The notes under the pieces are model-generated. The model was not told where the DNA came from. It saw only the letters and a program-made list of their open reading frames with translations, and searched no databases. This document shows, in pieces, positions 7,302 through 41,881 of a stretch of DNA of 64,000 nt. Where the stretch lies: NCBI RefSeq assembly GCF_002245215.1, contig NZ_NPMR01000002.1, forward strand, positions 1,157,557 through 1,221,556. The letters run 5' to 3'. Within the stretch, counting starts at the first letter, position 1; the number at the start of each line of letters is the position of its first letter. This stretch comes from Microbacterium sp. Yaish 1. Lineage in GTDB: Bacteria > Actinomycetota > Actinomycetes > Actinomycetales > Microbacteriaceae. The position numbers were made by a program, and so were the translations under genes.

Positions 7302-7317
7302 AGACAAGAGACTCGGG

Positions 7318-9125: not shown

Positions 9126-9154
9126 GAGACCATCCTGCCGCTCCGCGCTGCCGC

Positions 9155-12232: not shown

Positions 12233-12246
12233 CCCCCCCTTTTTCC

Positions 12247-12314: not shown

Positions 12315-12421
12315 CAGGGGGGCGGAGCCAGGGGTCCTGCACAGGGGGCTGAGGGGGCGAGATATCCCCGGGACTGGCAGCGGAACGTCGGCGCGAGCCC
12401 TCGGAGACGGATGCTGGTGCG

Positions 12422-13309: not shown

Positions 13310-13320
13310 CGCACCTCACT

Positions 13321-13387
13321 CCGTCGACTCGCCACGAACTGCGGATGCCGGCACCCGATCATCCGCATTCTCTGGCGACTCGACGGG
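13321..13387. repeat. Intergenic palindromic repeat, copy D
   Basis: Lies between the convergent DUF559 and murB stop codons. The left end is CCGTCGACTCGCCACGAACT and the right end is TCTGGCGACTCGACGG. Internal TGCGGATGC and CATCCGCA are complementary. As with copy B, it fills a convergent gap and could terminate transcription from both sides. Confidence 0.78.
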
Positions 13388-13400
13388 TGGGGCGGGGGGC

Positions 13401-15393: not shown

Positions 15394-15402
15394 CGTCCGA
15401 TT

Positions 15403-16238: not shown

Positions 16239-16239
<1 letters not shown>
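15403..16239 (-). CDS. TauE/SafE-family sulfite or anion exporter
   Basis: A 278-residue membrane protein with about eight hydrophobic segments in two related halves. Each half contains the glycine-rich family motif (LSGLFGVGGGTVIVPLL and MAGLLGVGGGVIVVPAL). The ATG at 16239 overlaps the TGA of the upstream DUF2510 gene by one base, and the basic MGERGARRSARF start precedes the first helix. The family exports small anions or organosulfur compounds; the substrate here is unknown. The C-terminal tail is Arg/Ala-rich. Confidence 0.85.
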
Positions 16240-17114
<875 letters not shown>

Positions 17115-17157
17115 CTCTGCCTTCTCTCGCGTCGGGCGCAGATCCGCCTCGTTCAGA

Positions 17158-19212
17158 CTACCGATCGGCCGCGACCTGGCTGCCCGTCCCGCCGTCGGCC
17201 GCGCCGATCTCGGCGACCGCCTCCGCCTGCTCGGTCGCGGCCTGCTCGAACTGCGATCGGTAGAGGCGCCAGTAGGCGCCCTGAGCGGCGATCAGCTCGT
17301 CGTGCGAGCCCTTCTCGACGATGTCGCCGTGCTCCATCACGAGGATGAGGTCGGCGTCGCGGATGGTCGAGAGCCGGTGTGCGATGACGAACGAGGTGCG
17401 GCCCTCGCGCAGCGCCGACATCGCCTGCTGCAGCAGCAGCTCAGTGCGGGTGTCGACCGAGCTCGTCGCCTCGTCGAGGATGAGCACGGCCGGCTGCGCC
17501 ACGAAGGCCCGCGCGATCGTGATGAGCTGCTTCTCACCGGCCGAGACGTTCGCGGCATCCTCGTCGAGCACGGTGTCGTACCCGTCGGGCAGCGAATGCA
17601 CGAAGCGGTCGACGCGCGTCGCGATCGCCGCCTCGACGATCTCGTCGTCGGTCGCGCTCTCGCGGCCGTAGCGGATGTTGTCCCGGATGGTTCCGGCGAA
17701 CAGCCAGGGGTCTTGCAGCACCATCCCCGTGCGCGAGCGCACGTCGTCGCGCGACAGCTCGGAGATGTCCTGACCGTCGAGCAGGATGCGGCCGCCGTCG
17801 AGCTCGTAGAAGCGCATGAGCAGGTTCACGAGCGTGGTCTTGCCGGCCCCGGTCGGTCCGACGATCGCGACCGTCTGGCCCGGCTCGACCCGGAACGTCA
17901 GGTCGGTGATGAGGGGCTTGTCGGGTGAGTAGGCGAAGCGGACATGCTCGAACTCGATGACGCCGCGACCGCCGCGCACCGGCTCGGCGTCGGGGGCGTC
18001 GGGCTCCTGCTCGTCCTCGTCGAGCAGCTCGAACACGCGCTCGGCCGACGCGGTGCCGGACTGCACGACCGCGGCCATGCCGCCGAGCTCGGACAGCGGC
18101 TGGGTGAACTGCTGCGAGTACTGGATGAACGCCTGCACGTCGCCCAGTCGCAGCTGCCCCGAGGCGACCATCAGGCCGCCCAGCACCGCGATGCCGACGT
18201 ACGTGAGGTTCCCGATGAAGGTCATGCCCGGCATGATCAGGCCCGACAGGAACTGCGCCTTGAACGCCGCCTCGAACAGCTCGTCGTTCTCGGCCGCGAA
18301 CTTCTCGCGCGCATCGCGCTCGCGGCCGTACACCCGGACGAGCGCGTGCCCGGAGAACGACTCCTCGACGCGGGCGTTGAGGCGTCCGACCTTGCGCCAC
18401 TGCACGGCGAACGCCTTCTGCGAGCGTGGTCCGATCACGCCGAAGATCACGGCCATGAGCGGCAGCGACACGAGCGCCACGAGCGCGAGCTGCCACGAGA
18501 TCGAGAACATCATGAACAGCACGCCGACGACCGTCAGCACGCTCGTGAGGGCCGTCGAGAGCGACTGCTGCATCGTCTGGGTGATGTTGTCGATGTCGTT
18601 CGTGACCCGCGAGATCAGCTCACCACGCTGGACCCGGTCGAAGTACGACAGCGGCAGCCGGTTGATCTTCGCCTCGACCGACTCGCGCAGACGCCACATC
18701 GTGCGCACCATGATGATGTTGATGACGAAGCCCTGCAGCCAGGTGAGCACGGCCGAGCCGACGTAGATCGCGAGCACGGTGACGACGACCCACTTCAGCC
18801 GGTCGAAGTCGACGCCGGCGCCGACCTGGAAGTTCTGCATCGCACCGACGAGGTTGGCGATATCGGTCTGACCCGCCGCGTTGAGGGCCGCGACCACGTC
18901 CTCCTGGCTCGTGCCCGCGGGGAACTGCGAGCCGAGGTTCGCGGAGACGACGCCCTCGAAGATGAGGTTGGTCGCGTCGCCGAGCACCCGCGGGGCGAGG
19001 ACGGCGAGAACCACGCCGACCGCACCGAGAACCGTCATGAGGGCGAACACGACCGCGTAGGGCCGGAGCAGTCCGATCATCCGCAGGAAGCTCGGCCCGA
19101 ACTTCGCCGCCTTGCCCGGTGCCACACTGTCCCAGCTGCCCGAGTTCTGGCGGGCCTGCTCGGCCAGCTCGAGCTCGGTGCGCTCGTCGTCGGTGAGGTT
19201 GTCGGCGCTCAT
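17158..19212 (-). CDS. Heterodimeric ABC exporter, subunit with the complete catalytic site
   Basis: A 684-residue half transporter: cytoplasmic lead, six-helix exporter domain to about residue 390, then an ATPase domain. Walker A is GPTGAGKTTLVNL and Walker B is ILILDEATSSVD with the catalytic Glu. The signature is atypical (NVSAGEKQLITIARAF, not LSGGQ). Residues about 90-140 form an unusually long first external loop (ANLGSQFPAGTSQEDVVAAL). Together with the overlapping upstream gene it makes an asymmetric exporter of the TmrAB/BmrCD/TM287-288 kind. Likely substrates are drugs, lipids or peptides. The start overlaps the partner stop by four bases. Confidence 0.9.
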   Translation of the reverse strand: MSADNLTDDERTELELAEQARQNSGSWDSVAPGKAAKFGPSFLRMIGLLRPYAVVFALMTVLGAVGVVLAVLAPRVLGDATNLIFEGVVSANLGSQFPAGTSQEDVVAALNAAGQTDIANLVGAMQNFQVGAGVDFDRLKWVVVTVLAIYVGSAVLTWLQGFVINIIMVRTMWRLRESVEAKINRLPLSYFDRVQRGELISRVTNDIDNITQTMQQSLSTALTSVLTVVGVLFMMFSISWQLALVALVSLPLMAVIFGVIGPRSQKAFAVQWRKVGRLNARVEESFSGHALVRVYGRERDAREKFAAENDELFEAAFKAQFLSGLIMPGMTFIGNLTYVGIAVLGGLMVASGQLRLGDVQAFIQYSQQFTQPLSELGGMAAVVQSGTASAERVFELLDEDEQEPDAPDAEPVRGGRGVIEFEHVRFAYSPDKPLITDLTFRVEPGQTVAIVGPTGAGKTTLVNLLMRFYELDGGRILLDGQDISELSRDDVRSRTGMVLQDPWLFAGTIRDNIRYGRESATDDEIVEAAIATRVDRFVHSLPDGYDTVLDEDAANVSAGEKQLITIARAFVAQPAVLILDEATSSVDTRTELLLQQAMSALREGRTSFVIAHRLSTIRDADLILVMEHGDIVEKGSHDELIAAQGAYWRLYRSQFEQAATEQAEAVAEIGAADGGTGSQVAADR

Positions 19213-20936
19213 GCGTCCACTCCCAGCTGCGATTCGACGATCTCGCGATACGTCTCGTTGGACTCGAGCAGTTCGTCGTGCGTGCCGAGCCCCGCCATCC
19301 GCCCGTCATCGAGCACGAGGATGCGATCGGCACCCGTCACGGTGGAGATCCGCTGTGCGACGACGATCTTGGTGACCTCGGGCAGCTCGCGCCACAGCGC
19401 CTCGCGCAGGCGCGCGTCGGTGGTGAGGTCGAGCGCCGAGAAGGAGTCGTCGAAGACCAGGATGTCGGGGCGGCGCACGATCGCGCGTGCGATGGCGAGT
19501 CGCTGTCGCTGCCCGCCGGAGACGTTCGTGCCTCCCTGCGCGATGCGGGCGTCCAGCCCGCCCTCCATCTCGGCCACGAAATCGCGTCCCTGGGCGATCT
19601 CGAGGGCCTTCCACAGCTCTTCGTCGCTCGCGTCCTCCCGGCCGAACCGCAGATTGGAGGCGACGGTGCCGGTGAACAGGAAGGCGCGCTGCGGCACATA
19701 GCCGATGCCTCTCCACAGCAGGTCGAGGTCGGCCTGCCGCACGTCGACGCCGGCGACGGTGACCGCCCCACCCGTGACGTCGAACAGACGCGGTATGAGC
19801 GACACCAGGGTCGTCTTGCCCGATCCGGTCGACCCCACCACCGCGACCGTCTCGCCCGGAGCCGCGCGGAACGAGATTCCCTCGAGGACCGGCGCATCGG
19901 CGCCCGGGTAGGTGAACGAGACGTCGTCGAACGCGATGGCGCCGGGCTCGGGGAACTCACGTACCGGTGACGCGGGGCGCTCGAGAGCGTCGTGGGAGGA
20001 GAGCACCTCGCCGATGCGGTCGGCCGAGACCGCGGCGCGCGGAATCATGATCGTCATGAACGTCGCCATCAGCACGCCCATGAGGATCTGGCCCACGTAC
20101 TGCATGAACGCGAACAGCGTGCCGATCTGCACGTTGCCCTGATCGACCTGGATGCCGCCGAACCAGATGACCCCGACGACCGTGACGTTGAGCACGAGCA
20201 TGGCGAGCGGGAACATCAGGACGAACAGGGATCCGACCTTGCGACCGACGATCATGATGTCGGTGTTCGCACCGCGGAAGCGCTGCTCCTCGATGCGCTC
20301 GCGGACGAACGCCCGCACGACCCGGACACCGGTGAGCTGTTCGCGCATGATGCGGTTGACGTTGTCGAGCCGCGTCTGGAACTGCCGGAACAGCGGCACC
20401 ATGCGACCGATGATGAGCCCCGCGACCACGAGCAGGAGCGGCACCGCGACGCCGATGAGCCAGCTCAGCCCGACATCCTGCTGGAGCGCCATGATGACGC
20501 CGCCGATCGCGAGCATGGGCGCGGTGACCAGCATCGTCGCGCCCATCATCGCGAGCATCTGCACCTGCTGCACGTCGTTGGTGTTGCGGGTGATGAGCGT
20601 GCCCGGGCCGAACCTCGAGACCTCGCGTTCGGAGAAGCCGCTGACCTTCTCGAAGACGTCGCGTCGGATGTCGCGTCCCGCGGCCATGGCCGCGCGGGCG
20701 GCGCAGAGGGTCGCGATGACCGAGGCGACGATCTGCCCGAGCGCGATGACGAGCATGATCGCGCCGCGCGACCAGATGTAGGCGGTATCGCCGCGCGCGA
20801 CGCCGTTGTCGATGATGTCGGCGTTCAGACGAGGCAGGTAGAGCGAGGCCATCGCCGAGCCGAACTGGAACACCAGCACGCCCAGGAGCAGCCACCGATA
20901 GGTGCGCAGGTAGCGAAACAGGAGCTTGCCGAGCAT
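19209..20936 (-). CDS. Heterodimeric ABC exporter, subunit with the degenerate site
   Basis: A 575-residue half transporter with six hydrophobic segments in the first 300 residues, then an ATPase domain. Walker A is GSTGSGKTTLVSL and the signature is canonical (NVSGGQRQRLAIARAI). Walker B reads ILVFDDSFSALD, so Asp replaces the catalytic Glu. In the dimer this Walker B faces the odd SAGE signature of the partner, giving one degenerate and one complete site, as in known heterodimeric exporters. First gene of the pair, with a 112-bp gap to the divergent alarmone synthetase gene. Confidence 0.9.
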   Translation of the reverse strand: MLGKLLFRYLRTYRWLLLGVLVFQFGSAMASLYLPRLNADIIDNGVARGDTAYIWSRGAIMLVIALGQIVASVIATLCAARAAMAAGRDIRRDVFEKVSGFSEREVSRFGPGTLITRNTNDVQQVQMLAMMGATMLVTAPMLAIGGVIMALQQDVGLSWLIGVAVPLLLVVAGLIIGRMVPLFRQFQTRLDNVNRIMREQLTGVRVVRAFVRERIEEQRFRGANTDIMIVGRKVGSLFVLMFPLAMLVLNVTVVGVIWFGGIQVDQGNVQIGTLFAFMQYVGQILMGVLMATFMTIMIPRAAVSADRIGEVLSSHDALERPASPVREFPEPGAIAFDDVSFTYPGADAPVLEGISFRAAPGETVAVVGSTGSGKTTLVSLIPRLFDVTGGAVTVAGVDVRQADLDLLWRGIGYVPQRAFLFTGTVASNLRFGREDASDEELWKALEIAQGRDFVAEMEGGLDARIAQGGTNVSGGQRQRLAIARAIVRRPDILVFDDSFSALDLTTDARLREALWRELPEVTKIVVAQRISTVTGADRILVLDDGRMAGLGTHDELLESNETYREIVESQLGVDA

Positions 20937-27823: not shown

Positions 27824-27885
27824 CACACGTCAGCCTGATCCGCCTCCCCCTCGGCTCATCGGGGCCGGCGTGTGAGCGTGGAATC

Positions 27886-29205
27886 ATGATGTCTTCGATC
27901 ACCGCCGCTGCACGCACGCTGACCGACGACTCCCCTCAGCTTCTGCTGCGCGGATACGGGTTCGGCGATCGGATCTGGAGGCGGGTGCGAGCCGGTGCAC
28001 GCTCGGCGCCGATGGGCCTTCTCGGCGATCCGACGATCTTCGTCCGGGGCGCCGAGGGCGTCGAGGTGTTCTACGACGAGGATCGGGTGCGCCGCCACGG
28101 GGCGATGCCGGGGATCGTGCAGGAGACCCTCTTCGGGCACGGTTCGGTTCACAGCCTCGACGGTGAGGACCACCGGCACCGCAAAGCGACGTTCCTCGAC
28201 GTCGCCTACGAGGACGAGCAGGTCGAGCGCCTGCGCCCCCTCCTCGCCGCCGAGTGGCAGCGCGAGCTCGACGACTGGTTCGCCGGCGGTGAGCGCTCCG
28301 CCTATGACGCGGCGGTGGGCGCCTTCGGGCGTGCCGTCATGCGGTGGGCGGGGCTTCCGGGAACCGCCGCGGCGAAGACGCGATGGGCGGGACGTCTCGC
28401 GCAGATCGTGGACGGCTTCGGCGTCCCCTACTCGCCCGAGTACCTCCTCGCGTGGATCAATCGCCGCTGGTCCGACCGCCACTCTCAGCACCTCATCGAG
28501 GCGGTGCGCGACGGCGACCTCCAGCCGGAGCCCGGAACAGCCCTCCACGCATGGGCCTGGCACCGCGATCGCGCCGGCGTGCTGCTGTCCGCACGACTGG
28601 CCGGGATCGAGCTGCAGAACAGCATGCGACCCATGATCGCCGTCGCGCGGTTCGTGGCCTTCGCCGCGAAGGAGCTGCACGACCGTCCGGAGTGGCGCGA
28701 GCGCATCGCCGCCGAGGCGGCAGAGCGCGAGACCCTCGACGGCGGACCGCTCGCTGTCGCGTTCGCCCAGGAGATCCGGCGCACCGCCCCGTTCGTCCCG
28801 ATGCTCCCCGCGCGTGCGGTCGCCGACATCGAGCTCGACGGCCAGCGCGTTGCGGCGGGTGGCCGCGTCGTGCTCGACATCCTCGGCACCAACATCGATG
28901 AGAGCTCGTGGGAGCGCGCCGACTCGTTCGCACCCGAGCGCTTCATCGGCGTCGACGACTACGAGGCTCTGTCCGCATTCGTCCCGCACGGCGGGGCGGA
29001 TGTCGCCACGGGCCACCGGTGCCCGGGAGAGAAGCTCGCGATCGCCGGGCTCGCGACCGCGATCACGGCACTGAGCCACCGGGATGTCGCGATCCTCGGC
29101 TCCGCTCTCGACGTCGACATGCGCCGGTTGCCGACGAAGCCCGCGTCGGGCGGCCGCGTCCGCGCGACCGGCACTGGCGGCGGTTGCCCGTTCCACCGGC
29201 GCTGA
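27886..29205 (+). CDS. CYP152-family cytochrome P450 peroxygenase (fatty-acid hydroxylase or decarboxylase)
   Basis: A 439-residue P450. The heme ligand is Cys379 in FVPHGGADVATGHRCPGEK, and the ExxR motif is E296-R299. In place of the I-helix acid-alcohol pair it has Arg248-Pro249 (LQNSMRPMIAVARF), the mark of H2O2-driven CYP152 enzymes that bind the fatty-acid carboxylate through this Arg. The position matching Gln85 of P450-BSbeta and His85 of OleT appears to be His89 (GSVHSLDGEDHRHRK), so terminal-alkene formation as well as alpha/beta hydroxylation is possible. Start is the first of two adjacent ATGs, preceded by weak GGAA. The tail is GTGGGCPFHRR. Soluble, no electron-transfer partner nearby, as expected for a peroxygenase. 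Confidence 0.9.
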   Translation: MMSSITAAARTLTDDSPQLLLRGYGFGDRIWRRVRAGARSAPMGLLGDPTIFVRGAEGVEVFYDEDRVRRHGAMPGIVQETLFGHGSVHSLDGEDHRHRKATFLDVAYEDEQVERLRPLLAAEWQRELDDWFAGGERSAYDAAVGAFGRAVMRWAGLPGTAAAKTRWAGRLAQIVDGFGVPYSPEYLLAWINRRWSDRHSQHLIEAVRDGDLQPEPGTALHAWAWHRDRAGVLLSARLAGIELQNSMRPMIAVARFVAFAAKELHDRPEWRERIAAEAAERETLDGGPLAVAFAQEIRRTAPFVPMLPARAVADIELDGQRVAAGGRVVLDILGTNIDESSWERADSFAPERFIGVDDYEALSAFVPHGGADVATGHRCPGEKLAIAGLATAITALSHRDVAILGSALDVDMRRLPTKPASGGRVRATGTGGGCPFHRR

Positions 29206-29343: not shown

Positions 29344-29728
29344 TTCTGGTTTCCGCGACGCGGGAGAACGCCCGGCATCATCCGATCGGATGAAATCTTG
29401 CGCGGAACATCAGCGGATACAGAGCCCCGCAGGCCCCACGCCACGGAACTTTTAAGTCGCTTGACCGGCTTTTTTGAGGCCGGCCGGCGGCGCAACCGGC
29501 CTGCACGCGCCGTCTGCCACCCGAGGCATGATCATCACGTCGGGTGCGATCCAGCGCTGATGGGGAGCAGGGCGGGCCTGCTCGATCCCTCGGCCGCGAG
29601 TTAGGTCCTCGTCTCGCGTCCGACCTGCGCCCGGGACTCTGGAGGGGTCCCGGGCGCCTTCTCGTTCCCGCATGCGGAGATTCTCTCGGCGTCTCAGCCG
29701 CGGCGTCGGCACCGTTCCCGCATACGAC
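29344..29728. other. Non-coding stretch between the P450 gene and the tRNA pair
   Basis: About 380 bp with no ORF that looks coding by codon use or by a ribosome binding site. It contains the perfect palindrome at 29378-29393, an AT-rich patch (CTTTTAAG, then GGCTTTTTTGAGGCC near 29465-29480) and several short GC hairpins, including CCCGGGACTCTGGAGGGGTCCCGGG near 29627-29653. A small RNA is possible but not demonstrable. Confidence 0.5.
29378..29393. repeat. 16-bp palindrome TCATCC-GATC-GGATGA, copy 1
   Basis: A perfect palindrome followed by AAATCTTG. Related copies with the same TCATCC-N4-GGATGA design and a following AAA/AAT-TT lie at 35298 and 38799. It probably binds a dimeric regulator; here no protein gene starts downstream on the + strand. 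Confidence 0.55.
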
Positions 29729-29755
29729 AAAACCCCCGGACGAACCGGGGGTTTT
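29729..29755 (-). terminator. Intrinsic terminator of the tRNA unit
   Basis: AAAACCCCCGG-ACGAA-CCGGGGGTTTT: perfect 11-bp arms with A and T tracts at both sides. It lies seven bases downstream of the tRNA-Met 3' end on the minus strand, so it ends the tRNA transcript. Confidence 0.9.
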
Positions 29756-29761
29756 CATCTG

Positions 29762-33255: not shown

Positions 33256-33330
33256 CGACAGGTTCCCTTCCGCGCTGACTCCTCACATCCTGGCATGCAC
33301 GGGGCTTCCGTGCGGGGCTGAGAGGATTCT

Positions 33331-34608
33331 GTGGTGAAGCCACCCCGAGAGCCCGGCGTCGACTTCGACGCGTCCGCGACGCAGACCTTCTTCCGCACGC
33401 GTCGCGCGTCGGCGATCCTGGTTGCGATCGTCTCGGTGAGCACGACCGTCCAGGTGCTGGCGACACCGATCACCGCGATGATCGCCGGTCCCGTCGACTG
33501 GCCCTTCGACGTATCCATATCGGTCCTGTGCGTCATCCTCGCCCTGGCGTGCGTGGCCCAGGCCTCGGCTGTCCTCCTGAGCGAGCGATGGCCCCGCACG
33601 GCGGTCTTCGCGACGGTCGCCGTCTATCTCCTCCTCCTCGGCGCCTTCGACATACCGAACTGGCTCATCGGCATGTACCTCGTCGTGGCACTCGCGCAGT
33701 TCCTTCTGGCCCGCCGGGTCTCGGCCGGTTCGGCCGTCGTGTGCTTGCTCGGCGTCGTGATCGCCGGAATGGGCGGGCTCTTCACCTGGGCCGTCTTCTA
33801 CTCGGGCGACGTCAGTACCGCCCTGAGCTTCATGGCGAACGAGTTCTTCCGCTTCTCCGCTCCTGCCCTCGGGGCGACCGCTCTCGGGATCTGGTGGCGC
33901 GCCCAGGTGCGTCAGGTGACACTCGCCCGCGAACAGGCCGAGCTCGCCCGCCAGGAGCACGACGCGCGCGTGAACGACGCACGGGAGCGCGAGCGCGCCC
34001 GCATCGCGCAGGAGCTGCACGACGTCGCGGGCCAGCACCTCGCGGGCCTCGTGACCCTCGCCGACGCCGCCATCTCTCTCGCCCCGGCCCGCCCCGACGA
34101 GGCGATCCGCCTGGTCGGCGAGGTGAGGAACGAGGGCCGGTTCGCCGCCGCGAGCCTCGCGGGTGCACTGAGCGACCTGCACGCCGAGGCGGCGGCCCCG
34201 GCCGAGACGACGCGTGACCTGCGCCGGGCGGGCGAACTCGTGCAGTTCTGGTCGCAGCGCGGCATGCCGGTGTCGTTCGAGCAGTCCGGCGGTGTGTCCG
34301 ATCTGCCCGCCGTCGTCTCGACCACGGCGTACCGCGCCCTGCAGGAGGCGCTGACCAATGCGGCCAAGCATGCTCCCGGCGCACCCGTGAGCGTCTCGGT
34401 GACCGCCGCCGAGGAGGAGCTCCTGGTCCGGGTCGTCAATCGGGCGCCGAACAGTGATTCGACGCCGGTTCCGGGCCTCGATCTGGGCTGGGGCCTGCGC
34501 GGGATGCGCGAGCGCGTGGAGCTGTTGCGGGGCACACTGTTCGCAGGGCCGTCGCCGACCGGCGGATGGGAAGTGCGGATCACGATCCCGATCGACCCGA
34601 TCACCTGA
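33331..34608 (+). CDS. NarL-type sensor histidine kinase
   Basis: A 425-residue kinase. Five or six hydrophobic segments form the N-terminal 190 residues, followed by a coiled coil (VTLAREQAELARQEHDARVN). The HisKA_3 helix RIAQELHDVAGQHLAGLV carries the phosphoacceptor His. The HATPase part shows LQEALTNAAKHAPG and LGWGLRGMRERVELL, but the usual DxGxG glycine box is weak (VVNRAPNSDSTP), as in some members of this family. GTG start at 33331, with AGAGG upstream and a second GTG in frame three bases later. Directly followed by its response regulator. Confidence 0.88.
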   Translation: MVKPPREPGVDFDASATQTFFRTRRASAILVAIVSVSTTVQVLATPITAMIAGPVDWPFDVSISVLCVILALACVAQASAVLLSERWPRTAVFATVAVYLLLLGAFDIPNWLIGMYLVVALAQFLLARRVSAGSAVVCLLGVVIAGMGGLFTWAVFYSGDVSTALSFMANEFFRFSAPALGATALGIWWRAQVRQVTLAREQAELARQEHDARVNDARERERARIAQELHDVAGQHLAGLVTLADAAISLAPARPDEAIRLVGEVRNEGRFAAASLAGALSDLHAEAAAPAETTRDLRRAGELVQFWSQRGMPVSFEQSGGVSDLPAVVSTTAYRALQEALTNAAKHAPGAPVSVSVTAAEEELLVRVVNRAPNSDSTPVPGLDLGWGLRGMRERVELLRGTLFAGPSPTGGWEVRITIPIDPIT

Positions 34609-34621
34609 CAAGGAGAACGGT

Positions 34622-35290
34622 ATGACTCGTGGGGCCGAGCGCATCCGCGTTCTGATCGCCGACGACAATCGTGCTGTGCGCCGCGGGCTGCGGCTGCAGC
34701 TCGAAGGCGCTCCCGGCATCCAGGTCGTCGGCGAGGTCTCGAACGGCATCGACGCCGTCCACGTCGCGCGCGCCGAACGCGCCGACGTCGTGCTCATGGA
34801 CATCCAGATGCCCCAGATGTCGGGGCTGTCCGCGACCCGCCTCCTCGCGCGTCCCGACGACGGGGGCGCACCCATCGCCGTCATCGTCATGACGAGCTTC
34901 GCCGTCGACGGGTACGTCAGCGAGGCCCTGGATTCCGGCGCCGTCGGATACCTGCTGAAGAGTCATGACTCGGACCAGCTCGTCGGCGCGATCTACGCCG
35001 CGGCGCGGGGCGAGGCTCTCGTGTCATCGCGAGTGACGGCGCCGCTGATCCGTGAGTTCGTCCGCCGCGGCGGCGCTCCCGAAGACCCTGAGGCGAGCGC
35101 TCTGCTGACCTCCGCCGAGCGCCGGGTGATCTCCGTTCTCGCCGGCGGCGTCACGAGCAACGAGGGCATCGCCGAGACGCTGCAGGTCTCGGTCCACACC
35201 GTGCGGTCGCAGCTGCACTCCGCGCTCAAGAAACTCGATCTCGCGGATCGCACCCAGCTCGCGCTGTGGGGAGCACGCAACCGGGTCTGA
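34622..35290 (+). CDS. NarL/FixJ-family response regulator
   Basis: A 222-residue regulator with a complete receiver: D14-D15, phosphoacceptor D60 (VVLMDIQMP), Thr/Ser in VMTSFA and Lys113 (GYLLKSHD). The LuxR-type DNA-binding domain occupies the last 65 residues (LTSAERRVISVLAGGVTSNE, VSVHTVRSQLHSALKKLDL). AAGGAG precedes the ATG by seven bases; 13 bp separate it from the kinase gene, so they form one operon. Targets unknown. A 16-bp palindrome lies just behind its stop codon, and the thioester-adhesin gene converges on it. Confidence 0.92.
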   Translation: MTRGAERIRVLIADDNRAVRRGLRLQLEGAPGIQVVGEVSNGIDAVHVARAERADVVLMDIQMPQMSGLSATRLLARPDDGGAPIAVIVMTSFAVDGYVSEALDSGAVGYLLKSHDSDQLVGAIYAAARGEALVSSRVTAPLIREFVRRGGAPEDPEASALLTSAERRVISVLAGGVTSNEGIAETLQVSVHTVRSQLHSALKKLDLADRTQLALWGARNRV

Positions 35291-35297: not shown

Positions 35298-35313
35298 TCA
35301 TCCATCCGGGTGA
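35298..35313. repeat. 16-bp palindrome-like element, copy 2
   Basis: TCATCC-ATCC-GGGTGA, a degenerate version of the perfect copy at 29378 and close to the copy at 38799; it too is followed by AAACTT. It lies eight bases after the response regulator stop and 30 bp before a strong terminator, so it might drive or control only a very short RNA. Confidence 0.5.
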
Positions 35314-35385: not shown

Positions 35386-37800
35386 TCAGGCCGCCCGCGC
35401 TGCGCGCTGAGCGTGGACCCGGAGGCCGCCCACCAGCACGAGCAGACCCACCATCATGCTGCCCAGACCGAGCATGAGGCCCAGGTATGGCGCTCCGCCG
35501 CCTGTCGCGGGAAGAGCACTGTGCCCGGGAACCACCGGCTCGCCACCGCGGACGTCGTTGACGAGGCCCGCGTCGACGGTGTCACCCGGGAGGATCTCCA
35601 CGGTGACCGGGTCGGCGGTCGCCACCTGCACGAGTGCGGTCGTGCCGGACTGAGTCTCTGTCACGACGCACTCCGACCCGGCGGGCAGGTCGCTGTACAC
35701 CTGCTCGTAGTCGCCTGCGCCGCTCCTCGCGGAGATGGCGAAGATCTCATCCAGCACGGTCCCGTCGTCGCAACGGATGCTGAGCTCGATGTCGCCCTGC
35801 AGGCCGGCTCCGCCGCCCGTGATCGACTTCACGACTCGCAGCGACCCGGGCAGGTACGTGACGTCGTTGGCCAGGGCGGCATCCACCGTCCCGCCGGGCT
35901 CGATCGCCACGGTGACCGGACCGTCGGTCGTGACGTCGACACGCGTCGTCGCTCCCGACGCCGACTCCGTGACGGTGCACTCCGTGCCGGCCGGGATGTC
36001 GGTGAAGACCTGCTCGTACTCCCCCGCCGCAGCGCCCGCGGGGATCGCGAACGTGTCCTCGAGGACACCGCCGCAGACGATGGCGAGCTCGATCGCCCCC
36101 TGTTCACCGGCGGCGACTCCATCGATCGACTTGACCACCCGCAGCGAACCGGGACGGTAGGTCACGGTGTTCGCGAGCGCGGCATCCGTCGTGGCACCCG
36201 GCTGGATCTCCACCGTCACGGGATCGCCCGTCGACACCTGCACCTGCGCGGTCTCGCCGGACTCGGCCTCGGTCGCCGTGCACTCCGTGCCGGCAGCCAG
36301 GTCGGAGTAGACCTGCTCGTACTGACCGGCCGCACTCCCCGCGGGGATCTCGAACGTGTCGTCGAGCACGTCTCCGCACACCACCCGCAGCGCGATGGCG
36401 CCCTGCTGACCTGCCGCGTCGCCGTCGATGCTCTTGACGACGCGCAGCCCGCCCGGCAGGTAGGTCACCGTGTTGGTGATGGTCACGGCCGCGCCCTCCG
36501 AGGTGATCTCCGCATCCTGTCCGGCATCGGTCGTGACGTCGACGACGGTGTTCGCGCCCGTGACCGGCTCGGTCACGGTGCAGGTCGTCCCCACCGGTAT
36601 GTCCCCGTAGGTGAAGGTCTGCGTGGTCGCGGTGCCGGCCGGGATGTCGGCGGTGAAGGTGTATCCCTCGCCGCAGTCGATGGCCAGCTGGATGTCGCCC
36701 TGCAGACCGAGCGCCTCGCCGGCGAACGCCTTGCTGACCGTGAGCGAACCCACCGCCAGGAACTCCGCCAGCGCGGAGTCGACCGCGTCGAGTTCGGCGG
36801 TGTCGGCCAGGATGAGCCGCTGGGCGTCGTCCAGGTCCGGCGTGTTGCCGTCGTACAGGTAGACCTGGCCGCGTTGGACGGTCACCGTCGCGCGCGCGTT
36901 GATCACGGCCTCCCCCGGTGAACCGTCGGGAACCCTGACCCAGATCTCCGTCCCCGACGGGACGGTCGCCGGGTTCGCCAGGGGCTGCGTGCCTGCTTCA
37001 TCCGTGAACATGGCGTAGCCGCTCGGAACGGAGACGGTCACGTCGCTCGTCCCCTCGGCGGTGACCGTGTACGGCCCCGCACTCGACGTCGCTGCGACCG
37101 AGTCCGACTCGGGCGTGATGCTCACTTCAGGCGCGGGCGGCTCTACGACGGGTCCTGCGGCCTGCGCGGCCGCGACGATCGCCGCCGTGGCCTCACGAAC
37201 CGTGGCACTGGCCGCCGTGCTGAGCACATATCCGTCGGTGAAGTACCAGATGGCCGACTGCACGGCGGCAGCCTGCTGATTCGGGGACAGCCCGGCGGGC
37301 TCGGCGACGGTCGGATAGAAGTTGTTCAGGATGTAGGTCACGTACCCGATGTTCGGAACGTTCGACTCCTCCCACGAACCGGACTCGTACCCGATCCCGA
37401 CGTATGTCGAGACGCGCAGGTTGATGCAGTACATCTCGGCGGTCAGCGACGGATCCGAGACGCTCGACGCGATGATCGTGCCGGCGAACGTCGAGACCGA
37501 CGCGTATCCCGCGGGGTTGGTGTCGGGATACGGCGCCTGCGGGTCCTGAGTGATGGGTGAGGGCGGTTGGAGACCCGGAAGCGTCGCGCCGGGGCCGAGA
37601 CTCGTGATCTGGATCTCGGTGTTCGGCCCGATCTGAGCGTCGACGATCGGCGTCGCATCATCGATGCGCGCGTGCGCGGCCTGTCCGAGCGGCGACAGGA
37701 TGAGCGCGGCGACGACGAGGCTGCTCAGTCCGGCGACGATGCCGCGGATGCGGGCGCCCGCTCGGGGCTCCCGTCGGAGACTGTCCGATCGTGTCTTCAC
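35386..37800 (-). CDS. LPXTG-anchored surface protein with thioester domain and four DUF5979-like repeats
   Basis: An 804-residue wall protein. Residues 1-43 are a signal peptide with a twin-basic start. Residues about 95-215 match a thioester domain: Cys125 (AEMYCINLRV) and Gln181 (AAAVQSAIWYFTDG) are the pair expected to form the Cys-Gln thioester that lets such adhesins bind host or surface nucleophiles. Four repeats of about 98 residues follow (GSLTVSKAFAG, GGLRVVKSIDGD, GSLRVVKSIDGV, GSLRVVKSITGG), each with two Cys. The sortase signal LPATG at 763 precedes a hydrophobic segment and the tail RVHAQRAARAA. GTG start at 37800 with AGGG upstream. Stand-alone gene; no sortase nearby. Confidence 0.9.
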   Translation of the reverse strand: MKTRSDSLRREPRAGARIRGIVAGLSSLVVAALILSPLGQAAHARIDDATPIVDAQIGPNTEIQITSLGPGATLPGLQPPSPITQDPQAPYPDTNPAGYASVSTFAGTIIASSVSDPSLTAEMYCINLRVSTYVGIGYESGSWEESNVPNIGYVTYILNNFYPTVAEPAGLSPNQQAAAVQSAIWYFTDGYVLSTAASATVREATAAIVAAAQAAGPVVEPPAPEVSITPESDSVAATSSAGPYTVTAEGTSDVTVSVPSGYAMFTDEAGTQPLANPATVPSGTEIWVRVPDGSPGEAVINARATVTVQRGQVYLYDGNTPDLDDAQRLILADTAELDAVDSALAEFLAVGSLTVSKAFAGEALGLQGDIQLAIDCGEGYTFTADIPAGTATTQTFTYGDIPVGTTCTVTEPVTGANTVVDVTTDAGQDAEITSEGAAVTITNTVTYLPGGLRVVKSIDGDAAGQQGAIALRVVCGDVLDDTFEIPAGSAAGQYEQVYSDLAAGTECTATEAESGETAQVQVSTGDPVTVEIQPGATTDAALANTVTYRPGSLRVVKSIDGVAAGEQGAIELAIVCGGVLEDTFAIPAGAAAGEYEQVFTDIPAGTECTVTESASGATTRVDVTTDGPVTVAIEPGGTVDAALANDVTYLPGSLRVVKSITGGGAGLQGDIELSIRCDDGTVLDEIFAISARSGAGDYEQVYSDLPAGSECVVTETQSGTTALVQVATADPVTVEILPGDTVDAGLVNDVRGGEPVVPGHSALPATGGGAPYLGLMLGLGSMMVGLLVLVGGLRVHAQRAARAA

Positions 37801-37997: not shown

Positions 37998-38663
37998 TCA
38001 TGAACTGCCGCCCGGCGCGGCGTCGTCGTGGGTTATCCGATAAACGGCCGCTTGCGTGCGGCTCTCCAAATGCAGCTTCGCGAGCAGTCCGGAAACGTAA
38101 TTCTTGATCGTCTTCTCGGCCAGTCCGAGTCGGTTCCCGATTTGCCGGTTGGTCATTCCCGCGGCGATGAACCGGAGCACCTGCCGTTCACGCAGGGTGA
38201 GGTCGGGGGCGACGGGCCCGCTCGGCGGTGCACCCGCGGCACGCACGGCCTGCAGGGTGTGCGGGTTCCCGCCGCGCGCGATCCGGCGCACCAGCCGGAG
38301 AACGTCCTGTTCATCGGCGTCGTCGAGGAGGTATCCGTCTGCCCCGGCGGCCCACGCGACGCGTTTCGCCTCCTCGGCGTCGCTGCGACCGTGCACGAGT
38401 ACCGGAACGTCGGCCTGCGCGCGCCGGATCCGGTCCACCGCGTTCACGATGCGCTCCGGCGGTTCGGTCGCGTCGAGGATCGCCACATCCGGGTCGGTGA
38501 GGTCGATCATGTGTCCTGCCTCGTCGAGACGGGCGACCTCTCCCACGACGACGAGGTCTTCGGAATCCTCGATGAGCGCGCGCAGCCCTCGCCGCACGAC
38601 GTCCCGACGGTTGATGAGGAAGACCTTCACCTCGTCACCCGTGTCCACCGCTTCTTCGTGCAT
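37998..38663 (-). CDS. DevR-like orphan response regulator with degenerate receiver (RamR-like by context)
   Basis: A 221-residue NarL/FixJ protein close to DevR/DosR in its DNA-binding half (LTLRERQVLRFIAAGMTNRQ, LAEKTIKNYVSGLLAKLHLE). In the receiver the acidic pair is replaced by Asn18-Arg19 (VFLINRRDVVRRGL), the switch Thr is lost (VLVHGRS) and the conserved Lys is Asp114 (GYLLDDAD). Only the acceptor Asp64 (AILDATEPP) remains, so normal phosphorylation is unlikely. No kinase gene is adjacent. It is divergent from the lanthipeptide synthetase gene, as orphan LuxR-type activators are in ram/amf-type clusters, and probably controls it. Confidence 0.85.
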   Translation of the reverse strand: MHEEAVDTGDEVKVFLINRRDVVRRGLRALIEDSEDLVVVGEVARLDEAGHMIDLTDPDVAILDATEPPERIVNAVDRIRRAQADVPVLVHGRSDAEEAKRVAWAAGADGYLLDDADEQDVLRLVRRIARGGNPHTLQAVRAAGAPPSGPVAPDLTLRERQVLRFIAAGMTNRQIGNRLGLAEKTIKNYVSGLLAKLHLESRTQAAVYRITHDDAAPGGSS

Positions 38664-38978
38664 CTCTTTTGCGCCTCCCCCGGGTTCGCTCAGTCAAACA
38701 CCCGGGGGTCGGCGCGACCAGGGGGGTCGCGGTTTCCGGGCTTTTCGGGTCTTTCGTCCCGTTCGACCCGCACAGCTGGCGCATCACCGACTGCGCCATC
38801 ATCCATTCGGATGAATTTTCCCGACCGATTCCGACACGTCCCGGACTTCTCGCCCGGTTCCGTTACGGCACAACCGGCGCCGAAGGGGGCTTTTCTCCGG
38901 TCCTCGCACGCTGAGCCCGACGTCCGGCCCGACCGATGATGACCCTGGGCCCGCCGTACCGGGCCGTGGGGGAAGCAG
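38664..38978. promoter_or_regulatory. Divergent control region of the regulator and lanthipeptide synthetase genes
   Basis: A 315-bp non-coding gap. It holds an inverted repeat CCCCCGGGT/ACCCGGGGG near 38677-38706, the TCATCC-ATTC-GGATGA element at 38799-38814, an AT-richer patch after it (AATTTTCCCG), and CGGGCCC-type repeats near 38946-38967. The ribosome binding site for lanKC is GGGGGAAG at 38967-38974. Promoters were not identified with confidence. Confidence 0.5.
38799..38814. repeat. 16-bp palindrome-like element, copy 3
   Basis: TCATCC-ATTC-GGATGA, 14 of 16 positions symmetric, followed by ATTTTC. Of the three copies this is the one in a real promoter region, 136 bp from the regulator start and 165 bp from the lanKC start, so it is the best candidate operator for the adjacent LuxR-type regulator. 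Confidence 0.6.
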
Positions 38979-41600
38979 ATGGATCCGATCTTCGGGCGTT
39001 TCGCGATACCGGATCGGGTGTTCTACGACTCACCCGACTCGGATGCCGCACGTGCCGGCGCACCGGAAGGCGCGGACGTCTACGCGCCGTCGACGACGGC
39101 CTCGTGGGACGGCTGGCGGCGGAGCCGGCGGCATCCATGGTCCGTCTGGATGCCGCACGGGATGCGCCTCGCCGATCAGGGGTGGAAGGTGCATGTCACG
39201 GCTCTTCCCAACGGCGCTCGCGATGTGCTCGACATCGTGTCGGCGTACTGCCACCGGCACGGCATCCCGTTCAAGCATCTGATCGACGAACGGGCGCTCG
39301 ACGCCGTGCTGGCGAAGGATGCCGAGCGGTCGGGTGCCGGGAAGTTCATCACGCTCTATCCCCCCTCGGAGGAGAGCCTGGAGGAGTGCCTCGTCACCCT
39401 CGACGAGGCACTCGGCTCCCGGCCCGGCCCGTACATCCTGTCGGACCTGCGCTGGAACGCGGGGCCGCTCTTCGTCCGGTACGGCGCCTTCACCGACCAT
39501 GAGGTGCTCGTCGACGGCGAGTCCCTGCCGGCGGTGCGCGACCTGCGGAGCGGGCAGTGGGAGCCCGACCGCCGCGAAGCCGGGTTCCACGTTCCGCCCT
39601 GGGTCAAGCTGCCGGCCTTCCTCCGGCGTCAGCTCGACGCCCTCGGAGACCAGCCGCCGGCAGGATTCCCCGAGATCACCGGGGCGCTGCACTACTCCAA
39701 CGCCGGCGGTGTCTACCGCGGCGTTCTCGACGGCTCTCCCGTCATCGTGAAAGAGGCCCGGCCGTTCGCCGGCTGGACCCCGGATGGACGCGATGCCGTC
39801 GCGCGGCTCCGTGACGAGGAACGGACCCTGCGGGCCATCGCCGGCGCAGTGCGCGTGCCGGAGGTACGAACATCTCTCGACGCGCACGGTCATCGCTTCC
39901 TCGTCCTGGAACAGCTGCCGGGCGAGCCGCTCGACCGGGTGGTGTCGACCAGCAGCCCGCTGACCGCCGCGGTCTCCACCGCCGCGGAACGCCACGCCTA
40001 TCGCGACCGGATGCTGCGCGTCCTCGGTGCCCTGCGGCGGGAGATCTCGTGTCTCCACGCCGCCGGCCTCACCCACGGTGATCTGCATCCCGCGAACGTC
40101 CTGGTCGATACGGACGGGTCGGTCGGTCTCATCGACTTCGAGATGTCGTTGCCCGTCGGCTCGCGTGCCGCCGCCGTACTCGGCGCGGCGGGGTTCGCGC
40201 TGCCCGATGAGCCCGACCCCGTGCGGCGCGACGCTCACGCACTGGCGTGCATCGAGCTGTACGTCTTCCTGCCGCTCACGAGCGTGCTCGCCCTTCAGCC
40301 GGCGAAGGCCGGCGCTCTCGTCGCTGAAGCCGCGGCGACCTTCGACCTGCCTCGCGCGTGGTCGGAGCGCGTGGCCGCCGCGCTGCGGCTCGGGTACCGC
40401 GAGGACGGCGCGACCGGCCAGACGGGCCGGCATCCGCTGCCCGTTCCGACGATCGAGCGGATCGCCGCCCAGCTGATCGCCGATGCGACGCCGCATCGCC
40501 GCGACCGGCTGTGGGCGGGCGATCCCCGCCAGTTCGCGGAGCCCGCGTTCTCCCTCGCCCACGGCGCACTGGGGGTCGCCCTCGCGCTCGACGCCGCCGG
40601 TGTCGCTCTGCCGTCCGAGATGCGGGCGTGGGTGTCGAAGTCGATCTCCGCCGTGCGGGACGACCGCCCTCGCGTCGGCCTGATGGACGGCCTCGCGGGC
40701 GCGATGTGGGCGTGCCGCCGCCTCGGGTTCACCGGCGAGGCCACGACGCTCGGCGAACGCCTGCGGAGCGTCGAGCTCGACGTCGGGGCATGGGGCTCCG
40801 ACCTCGCCTCGGGCCTCGCCGGTGTCGGCATCGCCCTCCTCGGCGCCTCCGGCTCGCCCAGCGACCTCGCGCGCGCGATCGACATCGTCGACCGCCTCAG
40901 CGAGCGATCGGGGCTCGACGAGCGGACTGCGCCGGCGACGACGCCTCCCGCATCACGACGGCGCGGCGGCCTCATGGGCGGTGCGAGCGGAACCGCGCTC
41001 CTGGCCGTTCGGCTGTTCGAGCACACCCGAGACCGGCGCTTCCTCGAGATCGCCCGCCGCGCTCTCGCCATCGACCTCGGCTCGCTGCGGCGGGACGGGG
41101 ACGGCTCGCTGCACGTGGACCAGGGCTGGCGGCTGCTTCCCTATCTCGCCCACGGGTCGGCTGGCATCGGCCTCGTGATCGCGCAGTACCTGGCACACGA
41201 TCCGGACGACGAGCTGGACGACGCACTGCGCGGCATCATCCGAGCAGCGTCGGCCCCCTTCGTCGTGCAGTCGGGCATCTTCGCCGGCCGAGCGGGGCTG
41301 GCGCTCTTCCTGCACTCGCTGCACGCGACCGGGCACGCGACGCCCGAGACCGTCCGCGCCCGCGACCACCATCTGTCGCGGATGACCCTCCACGCTCTCG
41401 ATGCCCCGGCCGGCGTCCGCATCGTCGGCGACGGGATGCTGCGCGCCTCGTGCGACCTCGCCACCGGGGCCGCGGGCGTGCTGCTCACCCTCGTCGCGGC
41501 GTCCGGTCGCGGTCCGATGACCGACCGGCCGCTCCTCCCCATACTCCCCCCGGTGCTCGCACCCGTCGGTTCTCCGGCGGCGATCGAACGAAGGAGGTGA
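38979..41600 (+). CDS. lanKC: Class III lanthipeptide synthetase (lyase-kinase-cyclase)
   Basis: An 873-residue three-domain RiPP enzyme. Residues 1-200 are the phosphoSer/Thr lyase, with KFITLYPPSEES typical of LanKC. The kinase runs from about 235 to 480, with Lys258 (VIVKEA), HGDLHPANVL at 366 and DFE at 386. The cyclase from about 520 has seven GxxG-type helical-barrel repeats (AHGALGVALAL, MDGLAGAMWA, ASGLAGVGIAL, MGGASGTALLA, AHGSAGIGLVI, FAGRAGLALFL, ATGAAGVLLTL). The Cys-Cys-His zinc ligands of class I/II/IV cyclases are absent, which points to class III. It should phosphorylate, eliminate and cyclise Ser/Thr/Cys in the peptide encoded four bases downstream, giving lanthionine and/or labionin rings. 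Confidence 0.95.
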   Translation: MDPIFGRFAIPDRVFYDSPDSDAARAGAPEGADVYAPSTTASWDGWRRSRRHPWSVWMPHGMRLADQGWKVHVTALPNGARDVLDIVSAYCHRHGIPFKHLIDERALDAVLAKDAERSGAGKFITLYPPSEESLEECLVTLDEALGSRPGPYILSDLRWNAGPLFVRYGAFTDHEVLVDGESLPAVRDLRSGQWEPDRREAGFHVPPWVKLPAFLRRQLDALGDQPPAGFPEITGALHYSNAGGVYRGVLDGSPVIVKEARPFAGWTPDGRDAVARLRDEERTLRAIAGAVRVPEVRTSLDAHGHRFLVLEQLPGEPLDRVVSTSSPLTAAVSTAAERHAYRDRMLRVLGALRREISCLHAAGLTHGDLHPANVLVDTDGSVGLIDFEMSLPVGSRAAAVLGAAGFALPDEPDPVRRDAHALACIELYVFLPLTSVLALQPAKAGALVAEAAATFDLPRAWSERVAAALRLGYREDGATGQTGRHPLPVPTIERIAAQLIADATPHRRDRLWAGDPRQFAEPAFSLAHGALGVALALDAAGVALPSEMRAWVSKSISAVRDDRPRVGLMDGLAGAMWACRRLGFTGEATTLGERLRSVELDVGAWGSDLASGLAGVGIALLGASGSPSDLARAIDIVDRLSERSGLDERTAPATTPPASRRRGGLMGGASGTALLAVRLFEHTRDRRFLEIARRALAIDLGSLRRDGDGSLHVDQGWRLLPYLAHGSAGIGLVIAQYLAHDPDDELDDALRGIIRAASAPFVVQSGIFAGRAGLALFLHSLHATGHATPETVRARDHHLSRMTLHALDAPAGVRIVGDGMLRASCDLATGAAGVLLTLVAASGRGPMTDRPLLPILPPVLAPVGSPAAIERRR

Positions 41601-41604
41601 GGAA

Positions 41605-41721
41605 ATGGGCTTCATCCTGTCGCTGCAGACGCTCGAGAAGAGCGAGGACGAGCACCGCACGGTCCTGGCCAGCACACTGAGCATCGGCCTGTGCCGGAGC
41701 ACCGTGTCGACCGCCTGCTGA
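41605..41721 (+). CDS. lanA: Class III lanthipeptide precursor peptide
   Basis: A 38-residue peptide starting four bases after the lanKC stop, with AAGGAGG (41591-41597) inside the end of lanKC as its ribosome binding site. The leader begins MGFILSLQTLEKSEDEH and contains ILSLQ, the ILxLQ-type helix that class III synthetases recognise. The C-terminal part holds two ring motifs: Ser23-x-x-Ser26-xxx-Cys30 and Ser32-x-x-Ser35-xx-Cys38, the second ending the peptide. Both fit the S-x-x-S-(x)n-C labionin/lanthionine pattern of SapB, AmfS and labyrinthopeptins. The leader cleavage site is not known; the core probably starts between residues 18 and 23. Confidence 0.92.
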   Translation: MGFILSLQTLEKSEDEHRTVLASTLSIGLCRSTVSTAC

Positions 41722-41765: not shown

Positions 41766-41792
41766 AAGGGCCCCCGCTCAGCGGGGGCCCTT
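41766..41792 (+). terminator. Intrinsic terminator behind lanA
   Basis: AAGGGCCCCCGC-TCA-GCGGGGGCCCTT, perfect 12-bp arms and a three-base loop, 44 bp after the lanA stop. It closes the lanKC-lanA transcript with no further gene in it, and on the other strand ends the tRNA-Tyr transcript eight bases after its 3' end. Confidence 0.88.
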
Positions 41793-41799
41793 CTCGATG

Positions 41800-41881
41800 T
41801 GGCGAGTGAGGGATTCGAACCCCCGAATGCAATGCAGTCTGATTTACAGTCAGATCCCTTTGGCCGCTTGGGTAACTCGCC
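41800..41881 (-). tRNA. tRNA-Tyr (GTA)
   Basis: An 82-base class II tRNA: acceptor GGCGAGT/ACTCGCC, anticodon stem-loop TCTGA-CTGTAAA-TCAGA with anticodon GTA, a variable arm (CTGCATTGCA) and T arm CGGGGGTTCGAATCCCTC. Discriminator A; CCA not encoded. No duplicated 3' end was noticed nearby, so there is no sign that it served as an attachment site for the lanthipeptide locus. Confidence 0.94.

What the first reader, a model, noticed from the sequence alone, without database searches (positions are those of the whole stretch)
41605..41721. Unmarked 38-codon lanthipeptide precursor gene with two S-x-x-S-(x)n-C motifs
The ORF is too short for usual gene callers, yet it has a strong AAGGAGG site, sits four bases behind lanKC, starts with an ILxLQ-type leader (MGFILSLQTLE) and ends in two ring motifs, STLSIGLC and STVSTAC. 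The pattern is that of class III lanthipeptides (SapB, AmfS, labyrinthopeptin). The core sequence is not one I recall, so the product may be an undescribed compact peptide with two adjacent rings or labionins, separated by a single Arg.
Basis: partly seen in the sequence, partly recalled or inferred. Interest (0 to 1): 0.9.

Follow-up and report, generated by a model that had tools for sequence, protein, structure and literature searches.

The report
Sensor-linked class III lanthipeptide gene
The tiny gene is a real precursor for a ring-forming peptide of the SapB/AmfS kind, made in a Microbacterium next to its ring-forming enzyme; the newer part is that in this genus the pair sits with a sensor-regulator pair instead of an export pump, and the sensor pair is often found without it.

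Summary
The ORF at 41605-41721 is real. It encodes a 38-aa class III lanthipeptide precursor directly behind a complete LanKC synthetase (38979-41600). It passes NCBIfam's curated SapB/AmfS model and Pfam's RamS model. Such an ORF stands at the end of lanKC in 26 of 28 sensor-linked loci of the genus, and the peptide is identical in two species whose LanKC is only 79% identical (three silent changes). As a peptide it is a new member of a large known family.

Less expected is the setting. The conserved unit is histidine kinase - response regulator - lanKC - lanA, without the ABC exporter pair seen after LanKC in 39 of 61 other fetched loci. An inverted repeat TCATCC-N4-GGATGA lies 180-281 bp before lanKC in 22 of 27 loci and is found beside the sensor pair where lanKC is absent. 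32 genomes have the sensor pair but no LanKC match; one keeps a precursor beside a LanKC remnant. In the window's clade the repeat also precedes a MacB-type ABC operon elsewhere. Likely reading: a lanthipeptide under two-component control, possibly sensed by that pair. Ring chemistry, export route, ligand and function are untested.

The parts
33331..34608 (+). NarL-type sensor histidine kinase with a hydrophobic N-terminal half (HisKA_3, HATPase_c); conserved partner of lanKC
   Evidence: Pfam; hydrophobic segments; relatives at LanKC loci
34622..35290 (+). Response regulator RR1, 222 aa, NarL/LuxR type, the likely partner of the kinase
   Evidence: Translation, NCBIfam hits below equivalog cut-offs, conserved behind the kinase
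35298..35313 (.). Copy of the inverted repeat with one mismatch, directly behind RR1
   Evidence: same copy kept in Microbacterium arborescens DSM 20754
35386..37800 (-). Surface protein with thioester domain, TQXA and DUF5979 domains (four stretches), C-terminal LPATGG and hydrophobic tail; seen between RR1 and lanKC only in the window's clade
   Evidence: Pfam and NCBIfam, sequence, synteny
37998..38663 (-). Second response regulator RR2, LuxR type, atypical receiver; stands with the surface protein
   Evidence: Pfam, sequence, synteny
38799..38814 (.). Exact inverted repeat TCATCC-ATTC-GGATGA, 180 bp before lanKC: candidate RR1 operator
38979..41600 (+). lanKC, class III lanthipeptide synthetase, 873 aa (RamC_N lyase, kinase-like, LanC-like cyclase)
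   Evidence: NF038151 853.8 bits, Pfam, solved LanKC relatives
41591..41597 (+). Ribosome-binding site AAGGAGG of lanA, abutting the lanKC stop codon
   Evidence: sequence
41605..41721 (+). lanA, 38-aa precursor; motif 1 = 41671-41694 (S23-C30), motif 2 = 41698-41718 (S32-C38)
41766..41792 (.). G+C-rich inverted repeat behind lanA, possible end of the transcript
   Evidence: sequence; not reported by the terminator scan, which wants a T run
41799..41881 (-). tRNA-Tyr downstream; neighbour of the locus

Best explanation
lanA (41605-41721) is the substrate of the LanKC encoded just before it. LanKC binds the LSLQ-type leader, phosphorylates and eliminates Ser/Thr in the C-terminal part and adds Cys30 and Cys38 to the dehydro residues, giving a small peptide with two neighbouring thioether (lanthionine or labionin) rings. 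A sensor kinase and response regulator (33331-35290) switch lanKC-lanA on: RR1 binds the inverted repeat TCATCC-N4-GGATGA 180 bp before lanKC. The peptide leaves the cell through an exporter that is not at the locus; in this clade the best candidate is a MacB-type ABC operon on another contig that carries the same repeat. Identity of precursor and synthetase is shown by sequence and conservation (about 0.97). Control by RR1 is inferred from conserved sites (about 0.7). Export route (about 0.3), leader removal and biological role are inferred only.
For: Curated model hits; 26 of 28 sensor-linked LanKC loci carry lanA; silent-only changes in two relatives; 1 of 475 frames. Residues invariant over 18 aligned LanKCs include kinase ones: K258 to P262 (KEARP), H366, G367, D368, N373, D386 and E388; D386 and E388 belong to a DFE motif reported for labionin-forming class III enzymes (PMC10604976, passages). 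Linkage to kinase and RR1. The repeat has at most 2 mismatches 180-281 bp before lanKC in 22 of 27 loci, against 0-3% of control windows in those 22, and lies beside the sensor pair in 26 of 36 further kinase loci against 10 of 384 control windows. Exact sites per genome: 4-5 in 7 clade genomes, 0-3 in 12 genomes without the kinase. Sites at the MacB-type operon conserved in the clade.
Against: No expression, mass or binding data. 5 of 27 loci lack a site within 2 mismatches (3-4 mismatches; two of them have a different perfect palindrome at the same place). Six more distant genomes with the kinase have only 0-1 exact sites, so the genome count separates the clade, not kinase carriers as such. 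32 genomes have the sensor pair without a LanKC match, so the peptide cannot be its only business. Three of 12 genomes without the kinase have a close MacB operon, so that operon is not tied to the peptide; one of the three has a one-mismatch copy of the repeat at the start of its first gene. The second MacB site is missing in two of seven clade genomes. A site at window 29378 lies between convergent units with no obvious protein gene to control.
Confidence: 0.65

Rival explanations
1. The peptide is the ligand of the neighbouring kinase: an autoinducing or neighbour-sensed signal. Producers make and sense it; strains without lanKC-lanA still listen.
For: Kinase, regulator, synthetase and precursor form one conserved unit. 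Presence of lanKC changes 12 times on the kinase+regulator tree, 11 of them forced by well-supported branches. The sister rows G077 and G355 differ by presence of lanKC, and both have the exact repeat behind RR1. G326 keeps lanA beside a LanKC remnant.
Against: No ligand data; a kinase of this type may sense membrane stress; the exporter a signal needs is not at the locus; the pattern could include gains as well as losses, and retention can have other reasons.
Confidence: 0.27
2. The peptide is an antibacterial, and the sensor pair is a cell-envelope alarm that switches on peptide and self-protection (ABC pump, envelope enzymes). Non-producers keep the alarm as defence.
For: Repeats at a MacB-type ABC operon divergent from a DD-carboxypeptidase gene and beside an acyltransferase-SGNH gene; weak similarity of the kinase to LiaS (42.2 bits, cut-off 450).
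Against: The characterised relatives SapB and AmfS are morphogens (PMC13380574, passages); no immunity gene recognised at the locus.
Confidence: 0.3
3. The peptide is a SapB-like surface-active peptide that changes how cells spread or stick to surfaces.
For: Family membership; a thioester-domain surface protein stands in the same locus.
Against: Microbacterium are non-sporing rods without aerial hyphae (general knowledge); the surface protein is not at the LanKC locus of the relatives outside the clade and only a remnant is left in M. arborescens DSM 20754.
Confidence: 0.25
4. The repeat is not the RR1 operator but the site of another regulator, or a conserved RNA hairpin at the end of the RR1 message.
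For: In L150 and L151 it stands right behind RR1 with no co-directed gene close after it.
Against: It also stands before the kinase gene and before lanKC, is found where RR2 is absent, and is more frequent in clade genomes than in genomes without the kinase.
Confidence: 0.25
5. The ORF is a chance frame and is not translated.
For: It is short; no expression data.
Confidence: 0.01

Closest known systems
SapB/AmfS family (ramCSAB-ramR and amfTSAB-amfR of Streptomyces)
   Same: RamC-type synthetase followed by a small precursor with LxLQ leader and two S-x2-S-xn-C motifs; passes NF033212 and PF19402.
   Different: No adjacent pair of ABC exporter genes; a linked kinase-regulator pair instead of the single regulator gene ramR, which one survey found only in streptomycetes (PMC4255298, passages).
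Labyrinthopeptin-type class III peptides (labionin)
   Same: Two neighbouring S-x2-S-xn-C motifs (labyrinthopeptin recalled); DFE motif in the synthetase.
   Different: Whether labionin forms cannot be told; second motif is S-x2-S-x2-C; single Arg linker.
Microvionin/lipolanthine from Microbacterium arborescens
   Same: Same genus; class III synthetase (microvionin recalled, and mentioned in PMC10604976, passages); the closest named LanKC (93%) is from M. arborescens DSM 20754.
   Different: No decarboxylase or PKS/fatty-acid domain among the neighbouring frames scanned; two S-x2-S-xn-C motifs instead of one avionin ring (recalled).

Membership tests
Class III lanthipeptide | LanKC with lyase, kinase and LanC-like cyclase parts, scoring as class III rather than IV | tested here: met
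   NF038151 853.8 (cut-off 575) against NF038150 307.9 (cut-off 650); Pfam RamC_N, APH/kinase-like and LANC_like hits; solved LanKC relatives
Class III lanthipeptide | Precursor with LxLQ-type leader and S-x2-S-xn-C core motifs beside LanKC | tested here: met
Class III lanthipeptide | Dehydration and thioether ring formation in the product | not testable with these tools
   needs co-expression and mass spectrometry
SapB/AmfS family lanthipeptide (NCBIfam NF033212, Pfam RamS) | Curated model score of the precursor above cut-off | tested here: met
   28.3 against 25; 26.2 against 24.3
ram/amf-type gene cluster | Two adjacent ABC exporter genes after the precursor | tested here: not met
   none of 19 sensor-linked loci shows a co-directed downstream pair, 39 of the other 61 do (counted by me from its table; 80 loci are the best 80 of 410)
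ram/amf-type gene cluster | Adjacent RamR-like regulator without its own kinase | tested here: not met
   a linked kinase-regulator pair is conserved; RR2 is an extra regulator gene of the window's clade only; similarity to RamR itself was not tested
Labionin-containing peptide | Labionin cross-link | not testable with these tools
   motif and synthetase sequence do not decide it (PMC7268733, PMC13380574, passages)
Lipolanthine | Decarboxylase and acyl-chain genes in the cluster | tested here: not met
   no such domain among 16 neighbouring frames scanned (one of the 16, 33283-34890, is the mirror frame of the kinase)

The most novel reading that the evidence does not exclude
A class III lanthipeptide that is the ligand of the two-component system encoded beside it: a lanthipeptide signalling unit in rod-shaped, non-mycelial bacteria, with a common operator before the biosynthetic genes and, in this clade, before an ABC pump and a small-RNA-like locus, and with many listener-only strains that lack the synthetase and precursor but have the sensor.
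Probability: 0.25. Interest if true: 0.72.

Novelty: new variant of a known kind. Interest (0 to 1): 0.42.

Why it matters
The peptide alone adds one product to a large family. The arrangement makes an open point testable: what SapB/AmfS-type peptides do in bacteria without aerial hyphae, and whether such a peptide can be sensed by a dedicated kinase. Close relatives with and without lanKC-lanA but with the same sensor pair (G077 and G355) are ready-made controls. In six searches of the open library I noticed no listed paper on this arrangement, from titles, abstract starts and some passages; subscription papers and supplements were not seen, so I do not claim that it is absent from print.

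Tried and rejected
Rejected: chance ORF. Class IV synthetase. Window ORF 27856-29196 (-) as target of the site at 29378: the + strand frame has the codon bias of a real gene and a P450 hit. The pcaIJ-thiolase-IclR-like genes beside some sensor loci as part of the system: they look like catabolic neighbours (my reading of the sequences printed, no family search). ABC pair 17158-20936 as the dedicated exporter: not syntenic with lanKC in the relatives fetched. Rfam match for the conserved region beside 29378: none at gathering score, six hits far below it; its fold is little better than shuffles (z -1.34). A conserved short gene in place of lanA in kinase loci without LanKC: none convincing. My codon-score gene caller missed RR1 in the window; corrected by hand. 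A first lanA count (16 of 28) searched too narrow a stretch; the wider one is. An earlier count said about 66 kinase matches; the listing gives 64. Promoter scan before lanKC: no sigma-70-type match.

Full report
What was checked. The ORF at 41605-41721 (+) translates to MGFILSLQTLEKSEDEHRTVLASTLSIGLCRSTVSTAC. AAGGAGG lies at 41591-41597, directly before the lanKC stop TGA, and the ATG follows that stop after four bases. Among 475 stop-defined frames of the window that can give 25-70 aa, 4 have such a leader, 12 have one core motif, 1 has two, and only this one has leader and two motifs.

Synthetase. 38979-41600 is a complete class III synthetase: NF038151 853.8 bits (cut-off 575), class IV model 307.9 (cut-off 650); RamC_N, APH/kinase-like and LANC_like domains; solved LanKCs match it. 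In the 18 genus LanKCs that I aligned K258, H366-G367-D368, N373, D386 and E388 are invariant; the Phe between the last two is not in the invariant list. A DFE motif there is reported for class III enzymes that make labionin peptides (PMC10604976, passages); I did not map the lyase residues of that paper. The same passages give an LELQL leader motif as critical for binding.

Family. The peptide passes NF033212 SapB_AmfS_lanti (28.3 against 25) and Pfam RamS (26.2 against 24.3). It stays under the cut-offs of the other three class III precursor models that it hits. The SapB/AmfS family is said to hold more than 4,000 sequences (PMC13380574, passages). [quoted passage not shown]

Conservation. 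LanKC occurs in 36 of 366 searched genomes of the genus at E <= 1e-40. In 28 loci where it is linked to the sensor pair (the window, L032-L056, L065, L066), 26 have a precursor ORF with leader and two motifs at the end of lanKC, starting from 47 bases before to 17 bases after its stop. The misses: L055 has the frame but no start codon giving that peptide, and L066 has a LanKC cut to about 330 residues. Motif spacing, as matched, is Sx2Sx3C in 22 and Sx2Sx2C in 4 for the first, Sx2Sx2C in 20 and Sx2Sx3C in 6 for the second; extra Ser residues make some assignments ambiguous. Across 23 aligned precursors M1, L5, L7, Q8, S23, S26 and C38 are invariant. Two species with LanKC at 79% identity have the identical peptide with three silent changes each; the next two relatives (LanKC 74% and 65%) have 4 and 10 replaced codons against 8 and 6 silent ones. 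Over 37 equal-length pairs among 16 precursors, codon position 3 differs more often (634) than positions 1 and 2 (459, 448), with 299 silent and 608 replaced codons, so outside the motifs the peptide changes readily. The closest named genome is M. arborescens DSM 20754 (LanKC 93%), with the identical peptide.

The locus. Upstream lie a sensor kinase (33331-34608) and response regulator RR1 (34622-35290). In most relatives the order is kinase - RR1 - lanKC - lanA; in a few, lanKC comes first and the kinase follows (L043/L091, L065, L066, L185). In the window and its nearest relatives (L032-L034) a thioester-domain surface protein (35386-37800) and a second regulator, RR2 (37998-38663), stand between RR1 and lanKC. 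M. arborescens DSM 20754 has only a remnant of the surface protein there. RR2 has an atypical receiver: no acidic pair and no Lys where RR1 has them (sequences compared by eye).

No exporter at the locus. 80 loci were fetched with names, the best 80 of 410. By my count from the table, 19 of them have kinase and RR1 co-directed with LanKC; none of the 19 shows a co-directed pair of ABC genes downstream, and 3 have some ABC hit within 6 kb. Of the other 61, 39 show two co-directed ABC hits downstream. The ABC queries came from this genus, so misses are possible. In Streptomyces two adjacent transporter genes and ramR belong to the SapB cluster (PMC4255298, passages). So I file the peptide in the SapB/AmfS family but not the locus as a ram/amf cluster. 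7 of the 36 LanKC genomes of the genus have only other, more distant LanKC types, several of them with ABC genes.

The sensor pair without the peptide. The kinase search over 366 genomes gave 64 matches at 254.8 bits or more in 62 genomes; the next match has 129.1 bits (counted from its listing). 32 of these 62 have no LanKC match, and all 32 have an RR1 relative at the kinase locus (133 bits or more). On a tree of 63 kinase+regulator rows (28 counted as with lanKC; L052 fell out for its weak kinase match; two rows with LanKC remnants counted as without) the label needs 12 changes, 11 forced by well-supported branches. G077 (with lanKC) and G355 (without) are sister rows with short branches; G355 has the exact repeat right behind RR1, followed by a hairpin and a sequence like the tRNA-Tyr of the window. 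G326 and G105 have a LanKC remnant, and G326 keeps a precursor ORF before the kinase. Repeated loss of the producing half with the sensing half kept is the simplest reading, but gains are not excluded by the counts.

An operator-like repeat. TCATCC-N4-GGATGA occurs exactly at window 38799 (180 bp before lanKC) and 29378, and with one mismatch at 35298; 3 matches against 0.23 expected. In the stretch 120-300 bp before lanKC, 22 of 27 loci have it with at most two mismatches; in those 22, 0-3% of same-size control windows do as well. L040 and L041 instead have the perfect palindromes TCACTC-N4-GAGTGA there; L039, L042 and L052 have only matches with 3-4 mismatches. In 36 further kinase loci (L150-L185: the 32 genomes without LanKC, G254, G255 and second kinase copies of G320 and G329) 26 have it just before the kinase or just behind RR1, against 10 of 384 control windows. 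M. arborescens DSM 20754 lacks the copy next to lanKC but keeps the one behind RR1. Exact sites per genome: 4-5 in the seven genomes of the window's clade, 0-1 in six more distant genomes with the kinase, 12 in total in twelve genomes without the kinase; reversed-pattern control 0 in all 25. The seven are close relatives, so they are not independent. RR1 is the best candidate because the repeat is present where RR2 is absent.

Other sites in this genome. Two lie in one operon on another contig: one starts 68 bp before a lipoprotein-like gene, the other about 30 bp before a MacB-type ATPase gene that is followed by a MacB/FtsX permease; a DD-carboxypeptidase gene is divergent. The first is kept with at most one mismatch in all seven clade genomes, the second exactly in five of seven. 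The same operon in three genomes without the kinase has no exact site; one of them (L223) has a one-mismatch and a two-mismatch copy near the first gene, another (L221) a two-mismatch copy. A further site lies behind an acyltransferase-SGNH gene and before a 284-aa gene without Pfam hit. The site at 29378 stands before a conserved stretch with a strong hairpin, between convergent units.

Mechanism and limits. Shown: precursor, synthetase, linkage, conservation, repeat. Inferred: RR1 binds the repeat and drives lanKC-lanA; the peptide has two thioether rings; export by a pump elsewhere; leader removal by a protease elsewhere. Open: lanthionine or labionin, and whether the peptide is signal, antibacterial or surface agent. 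I rate signal, antibacterial and surface roles about equally, and the ligand reading is the most novel not excluded.

Literature. Six searches for lanthipeptides with Microbacterium, Microbacteriaceae or two-component terms listed no paper that I noticed as describing this arrangement. One search found none; some searches listed 5 of 6, 25 of 33 and 12 of 15 papers, all 18, set to three of four terms, listed 20 of 3,856. Beyond listings I saw passages only, of PMC7268733, PMC5719810, PMC4255298, PMC13380574, PMC10604976, PMC10456417 and PMC12187853. PMC5719810 describes Brevibacterium class III clusters, which there contain ABC components. Supplements and subscription papers were not seen.

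Noticed in passing
L148 (own genome C2:862000-881999), about 6269-18210: A second lanthipeptide region: a class II LanM (638 bits, cut-off 304), an MsbA-like ABC gene, and a synthetase closest to class III but below its cut-off (311 against 575). Precursors not looked for.
   Followed up: partly
window 29400-29760: Stretch between a P450-like gene and tRNA-Met, partly conserved in the seven clade sequences aligned, with an exact inverted repeat at its start and a strong hairpin (GCGCCCGGGAC...GTCCCGGGCGC); no Rfam hit at gathering score. Possible RR1-controlled small RNA.
   Followed up: partly
window 35386-37800: Thioester-domain surface adhesin with DUF5979 domains standing, with an atypical response regulator, inside the lanthipeptide locus of this clade; in M. 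arborescens DSM 20754 most of it is missing.
   Followed up: partly
L078 and L079: The same kinase-regulator-LanKC order in a Cellulomonas metagenome bin and in Xylanimicrobium pachnodae. L078 has a precursor MGFLLRLQTLEEDINSIQHAASASSYSQTTCFSTTSQVIC but no repeat; for L079 my scan found no precursor and a two-mismatch repeat.
   Followed up: partly
L057/L058, about 2.4-2.6 kb before LanKC: Another lanthipeptide type in the genus: two 30-aa LxLQ precursors with one short motif each, upstream of a divergent LanKC followed by ABC-like genes.
   Followed up: no
L061/L062: Another divergent LanKC type with a 43-aa precursor MSALLSLQGLSNES..., ABC-like genes downstream and a kinase-regulator pair on the opposite strand upstream.
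   Followed up: no
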